A program made the position numbers and the translations under genes. From contig NC_080164.1 in NCBI RefSeq assembly GCF_950295315.1, forward strand, positions 63,254,042 to 63,318,041: a DNA stretch of 64,000 nucleotides. The letters run 5' to 3'. The notes below the pieces were generated by a model that was given only the letters and a program-made list of their open reading frames with translations, ran no database searches and was not told where the DNA came from. How positions within the stretch are numbered: position 1 is the stretch's first letter; each line of letters opens with the position of its first letter. The stretch comes from Erinaceus europaeus (lineage: Eukaryota; Chordata; Mammalia; Eulipotyphla; Erinaceidae). Positions 6,574 to 52,415 of this stretch are shown in pieces.

Positions 6574-6697
6574 GGCAGGGGAGATAGAATAATGGTTATG
6601 CAAACAGACTCTCATGCCTGAGGCTCTCATGTTCCAGGTTCAGTCCCCTACACTATCATAAGTCAAAACTGAGCAGTTTTCTGGTTAAAAAAAAAAA
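6574..6697 (+). repeat. Type D SINE
   Basis: GGAGATAGAATAATGGTTAT to an A-run. Confidence 0.8.
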
Positions 6698-6698
6698 A

Positions 6699-6985
6699 GT
6701 ATAGGCGGTGGCGCAGCGGGTTAAGCACACGTGGCGCAAATCGCCAGGACCTGCGTAAGGATCCCAGTTCAAGCCCCCGGCTCCTCACCTGCAGGGGAGT
6801 CGCTTCACAAGCGGTGAAGCAGGTCTGCAGGTGTCTGTATTTCTCTCCTCCTCTCTGTCTTCCCCTCCTCTCTCCATTTCTCTCTGTCCTATCCAACAAC
6901 AACGACATTAATAACCACAACAATGTTAAACAAGGGCAACAAAAAGGAAAATAAATAAATAAAACTTAATTTAAAAAAAAAAAGT
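6699..6985 (+). repeat. Type A SINE
   Basis: Inserted in the A-tail of the preceding type D copy. Confidence 0.85.
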
Positions 6986-44029: not shown

Positions 44030-44204
44030 TCTTTTTTGCTTCCAGACTTATCACTGGGGCTTGGTGCCGATACTACGAATTTACTGCTCCTGTGCCCATT
44101 TTTTCAATTTTTTTTTTTTTGATAAGATAGAAATTGAGATGGGGGGAGATAAGAGAGGGAGAGAGAAAGACTTGTAGACTTGCTTCACCGCTTATGAAGG
44201 GCCC
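44030..44204 (-). repeat. SINE with 3' module, left part (host of the nested insertions)
   Basis: Continues at 52424 after the LINE fragment and provirus. Confidence 0.75.
44197..44204. repeat. Target duplication of the LINE fragment, left copy
   Basis: AAGGGCCC, repeated at 52416-52423. The two flanks together rebuild one SINE. Confidence 0.6.
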
Positions 44205-44295
44205 GGTTCCATGGCTGCCAGTTCTTAGCAACATCGCCCCGCCAGATATTCGTCGGGATGCAGCATCATCTAAGTTCATTTCCCACGTCTATACT
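44205..44295 (+). mobile_element. Non-LTR retrotransposon ORF fragment, left part
   Basis: Plus-strand frame reading WLPVLSNIAPPDIRRDAA and ending ISHVYT at the provirus edge. After removing the provirus and one TATACT it continues in frame at 52065. The style (IAPPDIRR, HPIW) resembles the C-terminal part of LINE-type reverse transcriptase proteins common in invertebrates. The family is not identified. Confidence 0.6.
44290..44295. repeat. Target-site duplication of the provirus, left copy
   Basis: TATACT directly next to the LTR terminal TG/CA. It is repeated exactly at 52059-52064. Confidence 0.92.
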
Positions 44296-44765
44296 TGCCG
44301 GGATAGCCTGAGGGTACTTCTTCCCGAGCTAGTGCTCTCTGGGTTGGAGAGAACTCAACTGGAGCTGATCTAGGCTGCTGTGTGGGAGAGGGATCAGGAA
44401 CTCGTGCTGCACCAACTTCCGCAGGAGATACACTCTGGAACTCTCGGAGCCGGAAAGCAATTTCCAAGTGTCTTTAATCAGAAGAGCAGCTGTTTTTATA
44501 CTCTCCAAGTAGGGTGGAAACAGGATGTGATATAGAGAGGGTGGAGAGAAAAGTGACTGGTGAAAATCAGAGTGTGACAAAGAAGGGATCAGTGTGTGAC
44601 AAGGAGGGGGTGGAGCAGGAGAGAATCCTATCATAGAACCACCAATGCCCTGGAGTGCTTTATGTAAAAGTGATTTATGTAAATAGACCAAAGCTTTGGA
44701 TCAGTAAAATCCCTATATAGGCATATGGTTAAGCAGAAGCCAGGGGTGATGGCAACTACCCAACA
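44296..44765 (-). repeat. 3' LTR of the provirus
   Basis: 470 bp with TG...CA ends on the coding strand (TGTTGGG...CCCGGCA). TATAAAAA lies at 44493-44500 and the polyadenylation signal ATTAAA at 44473-44478, so R is short. It is nearly identical to the 5' LTR. Confidence 0.93.
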
Positions 44766-44782
44766 TCTCCCCCTTTCTTTTT
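44766..44782 (-). other. Polypurine tract of the provirus
   Basis: The coding strand reads AAAAAGAAAGGGGGAGA directly before the 3' LTR. Almost the same tract precedes the LTR at 36112. Confidence 0.9.
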
Positions 44783-46656
44783 AACTTTTTGCCATAGTAT
44801 CAGGAGTGCGGGGCACTTTGTGAGGCAGGGAGACTGATAAGAGGCACACCTTTTTTGGGGTTCTACTCTCCCTCCTTGCTCAACCTCTCCGTGGAGAGAG
44901 AGACTAACAGGATTGACACACCCCTCAGGCTCAAGCCCTTCCAAGCTCAACCATATCCTCACAATTCCCCAACATCTTCCTCTTACTTAATGGCCATATA
45001 TAACTGGGTCAATGTCTGTAAAAGGCTTCATCTCTGTCAGGGGAATAGCAGTGTAGGGGTGAACGGAAACCTGTTGGGAAGAAAGCAGAATGATAGTGTG
45101 TAAGTGTCTTCAAAAATAACTAGCACAAGACAGGGAGGGATAAGTAAGAGTAGCAAGAGACAGAGTGAGCCTGATGGGTGGAGGAGTGGGGGCCTGATAA
45201 GCCGAGGGGCTAGAGGGGTGATCTGGCATTGCAAAATCCCGAGTCAGCTGGCGGTAAGTTCTATGAACTGCTACAGTCATTCTTCAAGAAGTCCAGCAGT
45301 ATAAAAGGAGTGTCCAGCAAGTTCTATAGAAGCATCAGTCCAATGTCAACGGCCAGGAAATAAATGCCACACGTCTATCTTGATGGAGGAGGACGGCCAC
45401 CGGAACTTTTCTTCTCTGTAGAGAGTGACCTGGAACCGCCAAAACATGATGGGCAAAACAGAAGCAGGAAGAGCAGACACCGATGGTTGAGAGAAAGGCA
45501 GTAGGAAAGTCTTGTCCTTCGGAGTCTGTGAATCAGGTTCTCCAGATCGTGTCAGGTCACATCATGGGTTTCTGGGGATGGCTGTAATTGTGGGTGATGT
45601 CAGAGGTCAGGGGTCCAAGATGGATTTCTGGGGATTCTATATGAGCAGATGTTTCTTTATGCGAAGGCTTGTCATAGCTGTAGTCAATTACTTATGAAAA
45701 AACTTTGTAACAAATTAGAAGTTTACTACAATTGATAACTCAATGATTATAACTGGTTTAGGTATCTTTATAATTTTGTGTAAAGGTCATCTTACATGAC
45801 CTCATGTAGCAGTCTTTATATAGCAAAGTTTTCATACCGAGTTTAAGTTACATATATTGATTCTTGACTATTTTTACATTGGGTTTTTAAGCAAACTCAG
45901 GTTACTAGAGTTAACACATTTTAGTGACAATTTTTTTTTTTTTGGTACATTTACAATATCAGATTGATGCCAAATTTGTTGTGGATTAATTTCCACAAGA
46001 TAGCTTACAGGACATTTTTGGGGGCCCTCCAAAAATGTCCTGTATAGAGAATCTGTATTTTAACTTAGGAGATGATGAATTGTCACATTGAATATTTAGA
46101 GTTTTACCTTAAACACTCAGTTACTTAAATGAATTGATTTTACCTCTTCTCGTAAAAATGTAACTTCGAAGTTACAATTTAACTGTTAAGTTAATGTTTA
46201 CCAAACTTGAAACACGCATATTAAACATATAGTTTATAACACACAGGAGGAGAAAAACTTGTAAATAAGATATATCATTTCAAATGTGGATTTAGAACTA
46301 CTGTCATAGTTGAACCATCTTTACTCACACAGTTTAAGACTAAACATTTCATATTGGTATCAAGACTTAAAAAAGAAATCAAAAGGGGGAATGAACAATT
46401 TTTGGACTGTTTCTGGACGTCTCCAGAAACCATGGCTGCGTCCAGCCGTTTGATATAAAGTCAGTTAACTTTCAGAGTACTCTGAGCACAATGGGTCATA
46501 CAAAAATTTTGGTCACTCAATTTTTTTTTTTTTCACTCACTCACTCACTCACTCACTCACTCACAAAACACAACTGGCCAGTCATAGCATAAGACATTCA
46601 TTCGGGGGGGGGATGTTCTGTGAATCAGATTTTTTTTTTGATTCTGCCATGCTGTA
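44783..46656 (-). other. Non-coding 3' segment of the provirus (env position)
   Basis: 1.9 kb between pol and the polypurine tract. No frame reads as surface or transmembrane envelope protein, and I see no long open frame. It is AT-rich, with T-runs and a (GTGA)n tract (46532-46564). The stretch near 45519-45610 matches the 3' internal part of the truncated element at about 35690-35800 (AACCTGATTCACAGACTCC in both), so it is a conserved part of this family rather than random insertion. It could hold an RNA export element, as in IAP; that is inference. Confidence 0.7.
46532..46564. repeat. (TCAC)n microsatellite within the provirus
   Basis: Eight TCAC units following a T-run, just downstream of pol. 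Confidence 0.9.
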
Positions 46657-49317
46657 TTATGGATCCTGGGGTGCATCCTGTAGCCAGTCCTCTTGCAGCC
46701 AGTCTTCTTGCAGTGTTTCTTGTTCTTCAGGGATATCAGCGCCATCATGTGGGTATTGCCGGACATGGCGGGCAGGAACCCAAACAGGCTTGGAGTAATT
46801 TTGTGGAAAAATACATGCGAAACCCCTCCCCATAGTCAACAGGGGGTCAGGTCCTTTCCAAATTTTATCAAGTGGGTCTTTCCATTTGACTTTAATAGCT
46901 GGGAGGGTGGGTGGTGTTTGCCAATGAAGAATTATAGGAGGTTGGTCGGAGTTTTTGTAAATATTAAAGAGATTTAATGTAGTTAAGGCTTTTGCCAGCT
47001 GGATATTAGGGGGGTACATTTCCCCTTTTTCTTTATTTAATTGAGCCTTAAGAGTTTGATGGGCCCTCTCAACAATGCCTTGTCCCTGTGGATTATACGG
47101 AATGCCTGTAGTATGAGTAATGTTCCAGAGGGAACAAAAATCTTTAAATTGTTTGCTGGTAAAAGCAGGTCCATTATCCGTTTTAAGTTGAAGAGGTAAG
47201 CCCATTACAGCAAAACAGGAGAGCATATGGCTTATAAGCTTTTTTGAGTTTTCTCCAGTCTGAGCTGTAGCCCACATAAACTTAGAGAAGGTATCAATTG
47301 AGACGAACACATATTTTTGTTTGCCAAAGTTAGGTATGTGGGTAACATCAATTTGCCAAAGAGCGTTGGCTTTTAAACCTCGAGGATTAACCCCCAGAGT
47401 CTGAATAGCAGGTGTTTTGATTAGACCTGCACAGGAGGAACATGTAGCAAGAATACGTTTTAACTGTGGCAGAGGAATATCAGGAAATAGAGCTCGAAGA
47501 CCTTTAAGATTAACATGGGTTAGGGAATGAAAGTCAGCAGGATTAGAGACAGAGGCTAGGAGAATTCCTGTGGAGGCAAGGCGGTCAGCTGCAGCATTCC
47601 CTTCGGACAGGGGACCAGGAAGAGGGCTGTGGGAACGTAGGTGCTGAACATACAGTGGATGGGTTCGAGAACAAAGCATAGAGGCAATTTGAATTAAAAG
47701 AGGAGAAAGTGGGTTGTCATCAATTCTTACATAAGATCGAGCAAGCCATGGAAGTAAGTTAACAGTATACACACTGTCAGAAAAAAGGTTGAAGGATTCT
47801 GGTACAGCTTTTAATGCAAGGAAAACAGCATAAAGTTCTTTGTACTGAGGGGAATTATCAGGAAGTTCAGTAAAGAGAGGTTTGGGGTATTGCTGGTCTG
47901 GATAATATATAAGGGCAGCAGCTCCCTTTTTTCCACCATCAGTGAACACTGTAGGAGCAGAGGGGATGGGATCTCGAGAGAAAAGTTTAGGTACTAGTAG
48001 AGGCAACAGGGGTAAAGAAGCTATCAAATTATTAGAGGGAAAATGATTATCTAATTGTCCTGGAAAACCCATTAAACTTATGGCAAAACGAGAATGGTGG
48101 CGTATGAGCCATTCTGTATCAGTGAGAGAAAAGGGAAGAATGATTGAATCTGGTTCCCTTCCTAAGACCTGAACTGATCTGTTTCTTCCTTGGCGAACCA
48201 TAAATGCTAAGGCATCAATCTTGGTAAGGAGTCTTGGAGCTCCGCCTACTGGTGTATGAAGCCATTCGAGAACGCCATGTTTCTGCCACAATGCCCCCAC
48301 TACCGTGGGGGTGGAGTTAAAGATTAGAAGATTTACTGGAGAGGAGGGGGATAATCGAACGAGGTGCATGTCCTGGAGAGCCTGGTTAACTTTTTCCAGA
48401 GCCAAGGATGCTTCGGGGGTTAACATACGCTTTGAGGAGGGCTGTTTGTTTCCTTTTAACAGATCGAACAGTGGTTGCAGGCAGCTCGTAGGCAGATAAA
48501 GATACTGCCTAAGCCAATTCAAATTTCCAAGAAAACTTTGTAAAGAAGCAAGAGTGAGATTAGAAGGAAAAGTAACACAAGGTTTTAAAGGACGAATCTG
48601 CGTTAGGGAAATCTCTGAGCCTAAGAAAGATATTGGAGGGATTAGCTGTATCTTCTCAGGAGCTACATTAAGTCCACTTCTCTTTAAGGCAGGGATTAGA
48701 AAATCACGTAGGGCGGAGAGATCTGTGTCTAATTCTCCCCATATTAACACGTCATCCATATAATGAAAAACCTTAAGGCCCTTATGAATATATGGGAAAA
48801 GGGCAGATTTAACAACCTCTTGACAAATAGTAGGACTATTAGCCATGCCCTGGGGCAGTACCACCCATTCAAATCTATCAGCAGGGCTGGCATTATTAAT
48901 AGAAGGAACAGAGAAAGCAAAACGTTTACAATCTTGTGGGTGTAAGGGAATAGAGAAAAAACAATCCTGTATATCAATAGCTATGATTGGAATTCCTGTG
49001 GGAATTGCGGAAGCAAGAAGCAAACCCCTTTGGGGGGAGCCCCAAACCTGCATGGTTTTATTAACTGCACGAAGATCTTGGAGGAGGCGCCATTTTCCTG
49101 AGCGCTTTTTAATTACAAAGACTGGAGTATTCCATGGGCTCCGAGAATGACGAATGTGTCCCAAAGATAACTGCTCTTGGACGAGTTTTTTTAAAATTTC
49201 TAGCTTCTCCCTAGGCAAAGGCCACTGTTCCACCCAGACAGGCTCATTAGATAGCCAATCTAAGCGGGGAGTTCTGTTACGAACAGTGGCAGTTAGTATT
49301 GGGGGTGCTGGTTGGGT
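46657..49317 (-). CDS. pol: Retroviral Pol: reverse transcriptase, RNase H, integrase
   Basis: The frame is open from just after a TAG (49318-49320) and is -1 to pro. Recognisable Pol sequence begins TPRLDWLSNEPVWVEQWPL, upstream of the GTG at 49233 from which residues are numbered here. RT: DLRAVNK at 53, first catalytic Asp in AIDIQD near 87, LPQG at 126, YMDD at 158-161. RNase H: TDGG, ELYAVFLALKAV, SDSVYTV and GNAAADRLA supply the D-E-D-D residues. Integrase: HSLTH...CSSC zinc-binding HHCC, then IDVTHI, KTDNGPAF and GIVERAHQTLKAQL (D,D-35-E), and a C-terminal GPDPLLTMGRG domain. It ends with a repeat, QEDWLQEDWLQD. No internal stop. Confidence 0.93.
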   Translation of the reverse strand, partial: TQPAPPILTATVRNRTPRLDWLSNEPVWVEQWPLPREKLEILKKLVQEQLSLGHIRHSRSPWNTPVFVIKKRSGKWRLLQDLRAVNKTMQVWGSPQRGLLLASAIPTGIPIIAIDIQDCFFSIPLHPQDCKRFAFSVPSINNASPADRFEWVVLPQGMANSPTICQEVVKSALFPYIHKGLKVFHYMDDVLIWGELDTDLSALRDFLIPALKRSGLNVAPEKIQLIPPISFLGSEISLTQIRPLKPCVTFPSNLTLASLQSFLGNLNWLRQYLYLPTSCLQPLFDLLKGNKQPSSKRMLTPEASLALEKVNQALQDMHLVRLSPSSPVNLLIFNSTPTVVGALWQKHGVLEWLHTPVGGAPRLLTKIDALAFMVRQGRNRSVQVLGREPDSIILPFSLTDTEWLIRHHSRFAISLMGFPGQLDNHFPSNNLIASLPLLPLLVPKLFSRDPIPSAPTVFTDGGKKGAAALIYYPDQQYPKPLFTELPDNSPQYKELYAVFLALKAVPESFNLFSDSVYTVNLLPWLARSYVRIDDNPLSPLLIQIASMLCSRTHPLYVQHLRSHSPLPGPLSEGNAAADRLASTGILLASVSNPADFHSLTHVNLKGLRALFPDIPLPQLKRILATCSSCAGLIKTPAIQTLGVNPRGLKANALWQIDVTHIPNFGKQKYVFVSIDTFSKFMWATAQTGENSKKLISHMLSCFAVMGLPLQLKTDNGPAFTSKQFKDFCSLWNITHTTGIPYNPQGQGIVERAHQTLKAQLNKEKGEMYPPNIQLAKALTTLNLFNIYKNSDQPPIILHWQTPPTLPAIKVKWKDPLDKIWKGPDPLLTMGRGFACIFPQNYSKPVWVPARHVRQYPHDGADIPEEQETLQEDWLQEDWLQDAPQDP

Positions 49318-49931
49318 CTAGCAGTCTCACAGGAGTGAGTGTGGTGTCCTGCAGAGGTGTCTGAGGATATCACTACATCTAAAGATTCCAGCAAGTCTCT
49401 TCCCAATAAATTGGTGCTTATATCAGCTATTAAAGGCTGAAAGCGTCCGGTAGTCCCTTCTGGATCTTCCCACACAAGGGAATCTCGTGTGCGGAATGCC
49501 TGAGTCAATCCTCCAACACCATGTAAGCGAGGTCCTGGGAGGAGTTCCCAACTCTGGGGAACCTCTGCTTGTCTTAATATTGTCTTATCTGCTCCCGTGT
49601 CAATCAAACATTTAAAAGGAATATTACCAATCTTTACTGTCATAGTTGGGTGACCCCTTTCTAAAACAGGGGTGGTCCATAAAATCTCAGGCTCTGAATT
49701 CGAGCTGTTCTCTTGCTCCAGCCGGTTATTTCTATGCTGGAAGTTCCCACATACTGCGGGTTCCTCCTTCTGCTCACCCTCTGTTATTGTTACTTGGCGT
49801 GGTGGGTGTAGCGATGGATTGGGTCCCAAGCTGGGCTTCTGTTTGTGGAAGAAGGGCACAGCACCAAGCGGGCGACCTGCTTCCTTCCCTCTTGGGGGCG
49901 GGGCTAAGGGAAGCCCCATACCTAGTTTAAA
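49293..49931 (-). CDS. pro: Retroviral aspartic protease frame (Pro)
   Basis: This frame is -1 to gag and is probably translated only by frameshifting at 49925-49931; an in-frame ATG at 49919 is probably incidental. The N-terminal 80 residues are proline- and charge-rich linker. The protease core has the catalytic LIDTGADKTI, a GVGG flap region and the LLGRDLLESL signature. There is no dUTPase domain upstream and no G-patch downstream, both common in betaretroviral pro frames. Cleavage of Gag-Pro-Pol would be its role. The frame ends TAA at 49293-49295, overlapping the pol frame by 22 nt. Confidence 0.9.
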   Translation of the reverse strand, partial: FKLGMGLPLAPPPRGKEAGRPLGAVPFFHKQKPSLGPNPSLHPPRQVTITEGEQKEEPAVCGNFQHRNNRLEQENSSNSEPEILWTTPVLERGHPTMTVKIGNIPFKCLIDTGADKTILRQAEVPQSWELLPGPRLHGVGGLTQAFRTRDSLVWEDPEGTTGRFQPLIADISTNLLGRDLLESLDVVISSDTSAGHHTHSCETARPNQHPQY

Positions 49932-51442
49932 TCCCTGTTTACATTTGGCAGAGGCGTGCCGTTCCTATGGAACCTTGACCAACAATCTCTCCTCCAGTGA
50001 AATCCTTTCTGGCATCTGGGACAAGGCATTCGTGGTCTCTGATTCCCTGTCTGGAGGCGGGGTTGCCCTGATTGGAGGTGGGGTCGCCCTGACTGGAGAT
50101 GGGGTCGCCCTGACTGGAGGCGGGGTCGCGGTCTATTTTCTGGACATTGGTTACGCCAATGCCCTTGGCGACCGCACTGAAAGCAAGCTCCTTTTTGCTT
50201 ATGTAAGGTAGCTGCATAGGCCTGTAACATAGGTCCTTGAAAAGAGCTTGATCTGAGATCCTGTGTAGCTAGAATCCAAGTATCTGGGTGTTCGTTTTTA
50301 AGAGTGATACAGGCCTGTCGAAAATGCGGAAGCATTCCATCCCAGACTATGGATCGCAGAAGGAGAAAACGAGCGTCAGGATTATAAATCTTCCTTTCCA
50401 AACTCGACTGGGCCCTGGCAATGAATTTAGCGAGGGATTCATCAGGTTCTTGTTGCAGGGAGAGAATGGGGGCTGAGGCTGCTCCCATGGGTGGTGTTAA
50501 TCGCTCCCATGCTTTTAATGCACACAGGCGTACTTGATCAAAATACCCCGCTGGAAACTTGGCTTCCGCCTGTTGAATCCCTGTTTCTAATTGGCCTGTT
50601 CCAAACAATGCATCAAAATTACCCTCTGGCTGATTTTGAATATTTTTCCGCGATTGTTGTAAACATTCGTCACGAAAGAATGCCTCCCATTGCAGGAAGA
50701 GGGGGCCTGGGAGCGTAGCATGAGTCACATCTCTCCAATCTTGAGGGGTATTAAGGTTCTGAAGCAGGCCTTGTAAAATGGACCTGGTCCATGGGGCATG
50801 AACACCGTCATCTTTGATAGCCTGGTGTAGTTCCTTCAGGTCTGTGGCGGAATATGGATACCAGGCCTGAGGTTTTTGTCTATTGGGGGCAACATTGACC
50901 GGAAATGTGTGGACTTGCTCTGATAAGTGTGTAGCGGTAGGAGGAGTCATCGAAGTGGAAGCTTCTGGACAAGTGGCTGAAGAAGTGGTTTTGGAGGCTA
51001 CAGGAGAATTCGGACATGTGTCTATCAAAACAGGGTGGGGTGAAGAAGCAGCCGTGGAGGCAGCAGGAGGTTCCGGACACGTTTCTGCCAAAATGGGGGT
51101 GGCCGAAGAAGTGGCTGTGGAGTCCAAAGGAGAATTCGGACACGTGTCTGCCAAAATAGGGGCCTCAGGGCAAGATGCAGAGGAATTAGGGTGGGTCAAG
51201 ATCACAACAGGCCTTTGCTTCTTCTTGTTTTTAAGGTGCTGGTTAAGTTCTATGATTACTTCCTTTATCTCTTTGACCTCAGCCTCTAGGTCCTTAAGCC
51301 TTTTGAGAGGTTGACCTATATATCCCTTAAAAGCTGCTATGATGATCAACAGGATATAAGGTGAAGCCCCGAGAAAAATGTCCCAGATATATAAAAATTG
51401 TATACTGGAAAAAGAATGCAGGATTTGGAAAAGATTTTCCAT
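49922..51442 (-). CDS. gag: Retroviral Gag polyprotein (506 aa)
   Basis: Structural polyprotein of the provirus. I chose the ATG at 51442 because it sits in a perfect Kozak context (TCCACCATGG); the open frame extends upstream only through non-ATG codons. Residues 28-42 (PYILLIIIAAFKGYI) are a strong hydrophobic segment, followed by a charged heptad-like helix (about 46-76), and there is no Met-Gly myristoylation start. Residues 94-155 are three degenerate 21-residue repeats (PILADTCPNSP type). Capsid begins near 178 (FPVNVAP, YPYSATDLKEL) and has a major homology region at about 330-351 (QQEPDESLAKFIARAQSSLER). Two CCHC zinc knuckles lie at 420-433 and 474-487, separated by four 7-residue repeats (441-468). 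The frame ends TTA AAC TAG at a slippery heptamer. Confidence 0.93.
   Translation of the reverse strand: MENLFQILHSFSSIQFLYIWDIFLGASPYILLIIIAAFKGYIGQPLKRLKDLEAEVKEIKEVIIELNQHLKNKKKQRPVVILTHPNSSASCPEAPILADTCPNSPLDSTATSSATPILAETCPEPPAASTAASSPHPVLIDTCPNSPVASKTTSSATCPEASTSMTPPTATHLSEQVHTFPVNVAPNRQKPQAWYPYSATDLKELHQAIKDDGVHAPWTRSILQGLLQNLNTPQDWRDVTHATLPGPLFLQWEAFFRDECLQQSRKNIQNQPEGNFDALFGTGQLETGIQQAEAKFPAGYFDQVRLCALKAWERLTPPMGAASAPILSLQQEPDESLAKFIARAQSSLERKIYNPDARFLLLRSIVWDGMLPHFRQACITLKNEHPDTWILATQDLRSSSFQGPMLQAYAATLHKQKGACFQCGRQGHWRNQCPENRPRPRLQSGRPHLQSGRPHLQSGQPRLQTGNQRPRMPCPRCQKGFHWRRDCWSRFHRNGTPLPNVNRDLN
49925..49931 (-). promoter_or_regulatory. gag-pro -1 frameshift slippery site
   Basis: The coding strand reads GA T TTA AAC TAG. 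The heptamer TTTAAAC is one of the most efficient known -1 slippery sequences, in the correct phase, with the gag stop as the very next codon. The -1 frame continues into pro. A downstream pseudoknot was not tested. Confidence 0.85.
50039..50122 (-). repeat. Fourfold 21-nt tandem repeat between the zinc knuckles
   Basis: RLQSGRP, HLQSGRP, HLQSGQP, RLQTGNQ. The unit is seven codons, so copy number can change without breaking gag. Confidence 0.85.
50978..51163 (-). repeat. Threefold 63-nt tandem repeat inside gag
   Basis: Encodes three diverged copies of about 21 residues (PILADTCPNSP..., PILAETCPEPP..., PVLIDTCPNSP...) between the coiled coil and capsid. Confidence 0.8.
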
Positions 51443-51567
51443 GGTGGAAAGATCTCCGGAAAATAATAAGAAAGAAAAAAAAAAATCACAGTGCCTTAAC
51501 ACAATATTGCAGATACCCAAAAGGTGTACTTATCTAAGATGTCTTCTTGTAAATCTGCTGCTTACGG

Positions 51568-51585
51568 GTCCCTGTTCGGGCGCCA
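51568..51585 (-). other. Primer binding site, tRNA-Lys3 type
   Basis: Two bases after U5 the coding strand reads TGGCGCCCGAACAGGGAC, the exact 18-nt complement of the 3' end of tRNA-Lys(UUU). MMTV, MusD/ETn and lentiviruses use the same primer; mouse IAP uses tRNA-Phe (established). Confidence 0.95.
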
Positions 51586-51587
51586 GA

Positions 51588-52058
51588 TGCCGGGATAGCC
51601 TGAGGGTACTTCTTCCCGAGCTAGTGCTCTCTGGGTTGGAGAGAACTCAACTGGAGCTGATCTAGGCTGCTGTGTGGGAGAGGGATCAGGAACTCGTGCT
51701 GCACCAACTTCCGCAGGAGATACACTCTGGAACTCTCAGAGCCGGAAAGCAATTTCCAAGTGTCTTTAATCAGAAGAGCAGCTGTTTTTATACTCTCCAA
51801 GTAGGGTGGAAACAGGATGTGATATAGAGAGGGTGGAGAGAAAAGTGACTGGTGAAAATCAGAGTGTGACAAAGAAGGGATCAGTGTGTGACAAGGAGGG
51901 GGTGGAGCAGGAGAGAATCCTATCATAGAACCACCAATGCCCTGGAGTGCTTTATGTAAAAGTGATTTATGTAAATAGACCAAAGCTTTGGATCAGTAAA
52001 ATCCCTATATAGGCATATGGTTAAGCAGAAGCCAGGGGGAGATGGCAACTACCCAACA
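51588..52058 (-). repeat. 5' LTR of the provirus
   Basis: 471 bp. It differs from the 3' LTR by G/A at about 51739 and by GA for T near 52040, with the rest equal by eye. It carries U3 with a TATA box, R with ATTAAA, and U5 ending CCCGGCA before the primer site. Confidence 0.93.
51785..51792 (-). promoter_or_regulatory. TATA box of the proviral 5' LTR
   Basis: TATAAAAA on the coding strand in GAGTATAAAAACAG, about 20 nt before ATTAAA. It is the likely U3/R promoter. Confidence 0.7.
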
Positions 52059-52064
52059 TATACT
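52059..52064. repeat. Target-site duplication of the provirus, right copy
   Basis: TATACT, identical to 44290-44295. Removing one copy joins the interrupted reading frame of the LINE fragment (VYT|QPD). Confidence 0.92.
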
Positions 52065-52415
52065 CAACCGGACCTGCCAATATACGCGGATATCTTCGCC
52101 CACCCTGTCCAACACTTGACGTCTCGTCATCCAATCTGGTCCCCTACGCCTACACTGAACTTCTCTGTTCCAGACTCTTCACAACAGAGTTGGCAGTCAG
52201 CTGAGGTAACGAACAAACACCTCATCACACCTGCAGGCCGGTGCGCCTATGTTCCATCGCTGGGGAGCCAGAGACGACCCGAACTGCCCCTGTGGCTACA
52301 GACAGACTATGACCCACATAGTCAACGACTGCCACCTCTCCAGATTCAAAGGAGGTCTCGAAACTTTACATCAGGCTCAACCTGACGCTGATAACTGGCT
52401 ACGCTAGAAGAAGAC
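52065..52415 (+). mobile_element. Non-LTR retrotransposon ORF fragment, right part with 3' end
   Basis: Continues QPDLPIYADIFAHPVQHL to TNKHLI, then after a frameshift or small deletion reads MFHRWGARDDPNCPCGY followed by RQTMTHIVNDC and FKGGLETLHQAQPDADNWLR, stop. The C-x-C-G...H-I-V-x-x-C cluster is the zinc-like motif found at the C-terminus of several LINE clades. After TAG the element ends AAGAAGACA, like a short GAA tail. Flanking AAGGGCCC copies mark its own target duplication. Confidence 0.65.

What the first reader, a model, noticed from the sequence alone, without database searches (positions are those of the whole stretch)
44296..52058. Young, coding-intact, env-less class II provirus between MRPL35 and IMMT
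Seen: two LTRs differing at about two sites in 470, exact 6-bp target duplication, Lys3 primer site, polypurine tract, and gag, pro and pol frames without internal stops. There is no envelope frame in the 1.9 kb where env would be. Known: IAP and MusD elements that lost env became efficient genome colonisers. Inference: this is a recently active retrotransposing family in this hedgehog-like lineage, possibly still polymorphic.
Basis: partly seen in the sequence, partly recalled or inferred. Interest (0 to 1): 0.8.

Follow-up and report, generated by a model that had tools for sequence, protein, structure and literature searches.

The report
Young envelope-less retrovirus family
This stretch is a recently inserted copy of a virus-like jumping element that has no recognisable envelope gene and has left hundreds of copies, many with nearly identical ends, in its host's genome, so it probably spreads inside the germ line rather than between animals.

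Summary
44296-52058 (minus strand) is a complete provirus: TG...CA LTRs (2 substitutions, 1 indel in 471), exact 6-bp duplication TATACT, exact Lys3 primer site, polypurine tract, open gag, pro and pol, and 1.9 kb after pol without an envelope match.
The host assembly could be searched. The exact 20-base LTR-primer-site junction occurs 624 times and an exact LTR end 2559 times, controls 0. Of 20 proviruses hand-picked along one contig, 16 had both LTRs: 4 pairs identical, median divergence 0.55%. Eighteen pairs from copies chosen for intact Pol pooled at 0.06%. In copies not picked for intactness gag was open in 11 of 20, pol in 5 of 20.
Pol does not group with IAP (AU p 0.004); it sits on a long branch beside bird and turtle class II elements, with one 64% relative of unknown host. 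Gag has no Met-Gly start and a hydrophobic N-terminus. Most likely it spreads by intracellular retrotransposition, reached outside the IAP lineage (inferred). Host identity and insertion polymorphism were not established.

The parts
44290..44295 (.). target-site duplication TATACT, left copy
   Evidence: exact match to 52059-52064
44296..44765 (-). 3' LTR
   Evidence: 99.4% to 51588-52058, TG...CA ends
44766..44782 (-). polypurine tract
   Evidence: AAAAAGAAAGGGGGAGA directly before the 3' LTR; same in 18 of 20 copies, one variant, one without a 3' LTR found
44783..46656 (-). post-pol region where env would lie; no envelope frame found
   Evidence: no Pfam match in 7 open pieces; the 40 scored matches, window included, are 95-100% identical; indel-rich
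46006..46044 (-). 16-bp perfect RNA hairpin, candidate RNA-export or other cis element
   Evidence: fold z -4.9, lowest z of 45 windows in the region; self-complementary match in 37 of 40 scored copies; no variable column inside it in 11 sequences
46657..49317 (-). pol: RT (YMDD), thumb, RNase H, integrase with zinc-binding and C-terminal domains; 886 aa
49293..49964 (-). pro: aspartic protease (LIDTGA); no dUTPase domain found
49884..49931 (-). gag-pro -1 frameshift signal: TTTAAAC, 7-nt spacer, possible H-type pseudoknot
49922..51442 (-). gag: hydrophobic N-terminal segment, tandem-repeat region, p24 capsid, two CCHC knuckles
50973..51162 (-). tandem repeat inside gag, unit 63 bp (21 aa)
51568..51585 (-). 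primer-binding site TGGCGCCCGAACAGGGAC (the name Lys3 is recalled)
51588..52058 (-). 5' LTR with TATAAA at LTR position 267 and ATTAAA at 289
52059..52064 (.). target-site duplication TATACT, right copy

Best explanation
A young member of a class II (betaretrovirus-like) family that was without an envelope gene during its recent expansion and multiplies by intracellular germ-line retrotransposition. The LTR drives a full-length RNA; Gag is made from the first AUG after the LTR, Gag-Pro through a -1 shift at TTTAAAC with a possible downstream pseudoknot, Gag-Pro-Pol through a second shift of unknown signal; Gag is held at an internal membrane by its N-terminal hydrophobic segment; particles reverse-transcribe with a Lys3 primer and integrate with 6-bp (sometimes 5-bp) duplications. 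Shown by sequence: structure, copy number, recency, coding constraint, no envelope in the copies read. Inferred: the expression steps, membrane targeting, RNA export through the post-pol hairpin, purely intracellular spread, present-day activity.
For: Anatomy. 624 exact LTR-primer-site junctions and 2559 exact LTR ends, controls 0. Pol: 50 of 51 scored copies, window included, open over 886 aa at 99-100% (only the best 51 of 13979 candidates were scored). LTR pairs: 18 usable of 20 pol-chosen copies, 5 substitutions in 8062 sites, 14 identical; hand-picked copies along C1: 16 of 20 with both LTRs, 4 identical, median 0.55%, maximum 2.3%. Target duplications differ between copies, so insertions are independent. 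Coding constraint: pol dN/dS 0.28 (6 sequences with the window), pro 0.49 (10 sequences with the window), while the post-pol region has 4-5 indels per kb against 0.3-0.6 in pro. Internal length 6644-6856 in the 16 copies with both LTRs. Gag N-terminus hydrophobic without a Met-Gly start, the same N-terminus in 9 of 10 copies.
Against: No expression or particle data. A hydrophobic N-terminus is not proof of membrane targeting. Spread with an envelope supplied by another virus would leave the same DNA. No canonical slippery heptamer was found in the pro-pol overlap, so Pol expression is not fully explained. Of 20 copies sampled for pol, 15 were broken or incomplete. Four of 20 copies had no 3' LTR in the stretch read, so their length is unknown. 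Low LTR divergence could partly reflect gene conversion.
Confidence: 0.82

Rival explanations
1. The family spreads by infection or reinfection, its particles being given an envelope by another retrovirus in the same cells.
For: No envelope but open gag, pro and pol is compatible. A 64% relative of unknown host shows that the lineage exists in other sequence data.
Against: No Met-Gly start in Gag, a hydrophobic N-terminus instead, and no PPxY, PTAP or YPxL late motif found. Env-less length in all 16 copies with both LTRs, LTR divergence 0-2.3%.
Confidence: 0.12
2. An ordinary IAP family of this host.
For: Same architecture; hydrophobic Gag N-terminus; no env.
Against: Pol 41% identical to IAP; AU test rejects grouping with the IAP clade, p 0.0037, and with IAP plus rabbit relatives, p 0.018.
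Confidence: 0.04
3. An older family kept similar by gene conversion, or multiplied by segmental duplication rather than by retrotransposition.
For: LTRs can convert.
Against: Target duplications differ from copy to copy; uninterrupted copies of the repeat that was hit exist elsewhere; LTR divergence varies from 0 to 2.3%.
Confidence: 0.02

Closest known systems
Intracisternal A-particle elements (rodents)
   Same: class II, env-less, young, high copy; Gag with an N-terminal membrane signal in IAP (recalled), a hydrophobic N-terminus here
   Different: Pol 41% identical; separate branch in the tree
MusD / type D betaretroviruses (SRV, MPMV)
   Same: class II with gag, pro and pol frames; RNA-export elements are described for these (PMC11379458, PMC1363727, passages), their place near the 3' end is recalled; a hairpin lies there here
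   Different: Pol 44% to SRV-1; AU p 0.061 against joining SRV (not decisive); no envelope; no curated RNA-family match. MusD Pol was not identified in the comparison
Class II elements of birds and turtles (Hirundo, Apteryx, Natator records)
   Same: grouped with the window Pol at 99/97 support
   Different: long separating branch (0.72); Pol identity 38-41%
P0001, unnamed assembly protein
   Same: 64% identical Pol, sister with 100/100 support
   Different: host and genome structure unknown
Env-less ERV megafamilies (Magiorkinis and co-workers; cited in PMC4102558)
   Same: lack of env with large recent copy number
   Different: the young megafamilies named in PMC4102558 (passage) are from guinea pig, kangaroo rat, cat and mouse; none from a hedgehog

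Membership tests
Class II (betaretrovirus-like) endogenous retrovirus | class II Pol, pro in its own frame, two CCHC knuckles, Lys primer site, 6-bp duplication (feature list recalled) | tested here: met
   6-bp duplication exact in 14 of 16 pairs, the other 2 fit 5 bp
Class II (betaretrovirus-like) endogenous retrovirus | dUTPase domain in the pro frame (common, not universal; recalled) | tested here: not met
   only protease families found in the pro frame
IAP | Pol inside the IAP clade | tested here: not met
   p-AU 0.0037; 41% identity
IAP | Gag targeted to the endoplasmic reticulum | not testable with these tools
   hydrophobic segment, Kyte-Doolittle 2.01 at residues 19-37, is only suggestive
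MusD / type D betaretrovirus | Pol inside the type D clade | tested here: inconclusive
   best tree places it elsewhere; p-AU 0.061 for joining the SRV clade; MusD not identified among the rows
Env-less superspreader family | no envelope gene across the family | tested here: met
   no Pfam match in 7 pieces; the region is shared in 10 of 10 copies read and in the 40 scored; internal length 6644-6856 in 16 of 20, unknown in 4. An envelope profile search of the whole genome was not run
Env-less superspreader family | hundreds of copies, recent | tested here: met
Currently active element | insertions polymorphic between individuals | not tested
   one assembly only

The most novel reading that the evidence does not exclude
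A class II lineage outside IAP and probably outside the type D viruses, with one close database relative, turned independently into an intracellular retrotransposon: it lost env, has a membrane-anchored Gag, carries a short hairpin for RNA export, and is still inserting in its wild host, where many of its more than 600 proviruses are segregating.
Probability: 0.4. Interest if true: 0.7.

Novelty: new member of a known kind. Interest (0 to 1): 0.52.

Why it matters
If that holds, one could test whether loss of env and a switch of Gag to internal membranes repeatedly precede explosive copy-number growth, and study an active retroelement in a wild, outbred host.

Tried and rejected
Envelope: seven open pieces after pol against Pfam, no match. 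Known RNA families: none at the curated cut-off in the window; at a loose threshold, weak matches on the opposite strand (mir-492 at the hairpin, 25.2 bits against a cut-off of 76, E 0.0045), taken as a by-product of the hairpin. IAP membership rejected. Empty allele in the assembly: the 40 scored of 2835 candidates are all 96-97% and start at query base 28-31, so I take them for other copies of the repeat that was hit, not for the allele. tRNA genes in the window: none. Pfam on ten long open frames of the flanks: nothing above a cut-off. Literature: no paper on this family stood in the listings (20, 15, 20 and 12 rows shown of 23, 32, 1293 and 61); they cover an open-licence library only, and the 2012 PNAS paper on env-less families is not held. 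Recalled, from no call: the names Lys3, HERV-K and MMTV for the PDB matches, the IAP Gag signal, the LINE type of the target repeat, IMMT for Mitofilin. Never answered (not completed): Gag and P0001 against the whole genome, cytochrome b for host identity. Planned but not run: an envelope profile search of the whole genome, a search for tRNA-Lys variants. The third protein search, one fetch and the structure predictions were not used.

Full report
What is there. The stretch 44296-52058, read on the minus strand, is a complete provirus. The LTRs (51588-52058 and 44296-44765) differ by two substitutions and one 1-bp indel in 471 bases. With TG...CA ends the flanks carry an exact 6-bp duplication, TATACT. 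A primer site TGGCGCCCGAACAGGGAC follows the 5' LTR after two bases, and a polypurine tract precedes the 3' LTR. gag (506 aa from the first Met), pro (223 aa stop to stop) and pol (886 aa) are open and carry the expected Pfam domains. The LTR has TATAAA at 267 and ATTAAA at 289; 146 nt without an AUG separate it from the gag AUG.

No envelope found. Seven sense-strand open pieces of 61-92 aa after pol match no Pfam family at E<=5; smaller pieces were not searched. The region belongs to the family: the 40 scored matches (of 2718 candidates, window included) are 95-100% identical. In ten copies read it has 4.0 indels per kb among copies and 5.3 against the window, compared with 0.6 and 0.3 in pro, so it does not look coding. 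The internal length is 6644-6856 in the 16 of 20 sampled copies with both LTRs (window 6822); the other 4 had no 3' LTR in the stretch read, so a longer form is not excluded for them.

Copy number. In the host assembly (2.72 Gb, 1172 contigs) the exact 20-mer across the 5' LTR and primer site occurs 624 times and the exact last 22 bases of the LTR 2559 times; the reversed control patterns occur 0 times. If each provirus has two LTRs, roughly half of the LTR ends belong to solo LTRs or to proviruses with changed junctions; this is an estimate. Three capped top-hit lists (51 Pol, 40 LTR, 40 post-pol) cover 125 distinct loci.

Age. The first sample, 20 copies from the Pol list (so biased to the young), gave 18 usable LTR pairs (2 dropped for an incomplete 3' LTR): 5 substitutions in 8062 sites, 14 pairs identical. 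At 2.2e-9 per site per year (the rate in PMC4102558, passage) to 4.5e-9 (assumed) this is about 0.14 (interval 0.05-0.33) to 0.07 million years. The second sample, 20 of the 71 junctions listed on contig C1, I picked by hand along the contig without seeing their sequence; none of the five Pol-list copies on C1 is among them, so it leans to the old. It gave 16 full pairs: 4 identical, then 0.22 to 0.85% in 9 and 1.97-2.26% in 3; median 0.55%; the median is 0.6-1.2 and the maximum 2.5-5.1 million years at the two rates. Ten copies with the window's LTR type gave 6 with both LTRs, one slightly short, with 0-3 substitutions; in 4 the partner was not found. The window copy, 2 substitutions in 470, fits about 0.5-1 million years. 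Exact 6-bp duplications were seen in 14 of 20 (of the other 6, three fit 5 bp, one does not match, two lack a complete 3' LTR), in 14 of 16 (the other 2 fit 5 bp), and in 2 of the 6 pairs. They differ between copies, so the insertions are independent.

Intactness. Of 51 scored Pol matches, window included, 50 are open over 886 aa and one has a stop; only the best 51 of 13979 candidates were scored. In copies from the junction list, gag was open (from the same Met, at least 480 aa) in 11 of 20 on C1 and pol (at least 870 aa) in 5 of 20 on C2. These were taken in order of position, but I left out three C1 places (two of them Pol-list copies) and two C2 places (both Pol-list copies, known to be intact), so the pol share would be 7 of 22 with them. 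One gag copy taken (L138) is also a Pol-list copy. Pol dN/dS was 0.28 over 15 pairs of 6 intact sequences including the window and 0.49 for pro in 10 sequences including the window. Choosing intact copies favours low ratios, but they fit lineages that kept their proteins while multiplying.

How it probably works. The gag-pro overlap has TTTAAAC in the gag frame, a 7-nt spacer and two interleaved complementary runs (GGGGC/GCCCC and TTCCCT/AGGGAA) that fit an H-type pseudoknot. The 66-nt stretch is identical to the window in 9 of 10 pro pieces; in the 20 gag pieces it was found in 19, 7 identical and 12 with 1-4 differences, a few of them inside the stems. The plain fold is no better than shuffles (z -0.9); the program cannot score pseudoknots, so this is not support. 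The pro-pol overlap is 25 nt in 9 of 10 copies read (in the tenth pro is broken) and I found no canonical slippery heptamer in it; a structured stretch lies downstream (z -3.1). Gag starts without Met-Gly and has one hydrophobic segment (Kyte-Doolittle 2.01, residues 19-37); the N-terminus was found in 9 of 10 copies. No PPxY, PTAP or YPxL motif was found. My reading is that Gag assembles on internal membranes, as I recall for IAP. In the post-pol region a 16-bp perfect hairpin at 46006-46044 stands out (z -4.9; lowest z of 45 windows). RNA-export elements are described for type D viruses, IAP and MusD (PMC1363727 and PMC11379458, passages), so I suggest this role; it is untested, and the known MusD element is much longer (412 bp, PMC11379458, passage).

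Relatives. Of 418 database proteins found with Pol (120 listed), the best is 64% identical (P0001, an unnamed assembly), the rest of the list 38-44%; IAP is 41%. With Gag only three were found, at 62, 49 and 23% over 51-65% of the query. In a 60-row tree (rows chosen by me from the 120) the window and P0001 form a 100/100 pair on a branch of 0.72 and group with bird and turtle class II elements (99/97, midpoint root). Grouping with the IAP clade is rejected (p 0.0037), with IAP plus rabbit relatives too (0.018), with the SRV clade not clearly (0.061); the clades were named after a first tree, which weakens the test. MMTV, HERV-K and MusD carry no label in the tree; in the PDB the closest RT is 7sr6 and the closest integrases 7usf and 3jca. 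Long branches make the deep placement uncertain.

Site. The target lies inside another repeat: the joined flanks match 40 scored places of 2835 candidates at 96-97%, running through the insertion point. This supports the boundaries and the duplication. None of them looks like the empty allele. Mitofilin exons lie beyond the right end on the + strand.

Known or new. For Erinaceus europaeus PMC4102558 lists 3039 ERV loci, 2137 of them 0-10 million years old (Table 2, passage); PMC4335370 also has a row for it (1667, 1268, ratio 1.315; column heads not seen). So many young elements would not be a surprise if the host is a hedgehog. The young megafamilies named in PMC4102558 include none from it. 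PMC3758190 (passage) reports an IAP that gained a gamma-type envelope in a shrew. PMC12026660 (passages) treats LINEs and SINEs of an African hedgehog; the term LTR does not occur in it. I found no paper describing this family (listings). It is a new member of a known kind, interesting for its size, youth and separate Pol branch.

Noticed in passing
5' LTR junctions of 20 hand-picked copies (L091-L129, odd numbers): The primer site varies within the family: CCCGGAAC 11, CCCGAAC 3, CCTGAAC 3, CCCAGAAC 3 of 20. 14 of 20 have one extra base in the Lys3 site; whether a variant tRNA explains it is open.
   Followed up: no
LTRs of L001-L040, L071-L130: LTR length types from about 440 to 493 bp; the window has a 471-bp type, 18 of 20 pol-list copies a 448-bp 5' LTR that lacks a 22-bp stretch repeating neighbouring sequence.
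   Followed up: partly
49293-49317: pro-pol overlap without a canonical slippery heptamer, same length in 9 of 10 copies.
   Followed up: partly
50973-51162: 21-aa tandem repeat in gag between the N-terminus and capsid; intact gag copies vary from 496 to 515 aa, not traced to the repeat.
   Followed up: no
44045-44295 and 52059-52302: The element sits in another repeat family with at least 40 copies at 96-97%, perhaps a LINE by recall.
   Followed up: no
whole window: Dense dispersed repeats: 78 segments, 19552 bases, with three or more self-matches.
   Followed up: no
P0001: Only close Pol relative (64%), from an unnamed assembly with a longest contig of 6581 bases; whether it comes from the same host is unknown, the search did not complete.
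   Followed up: partly
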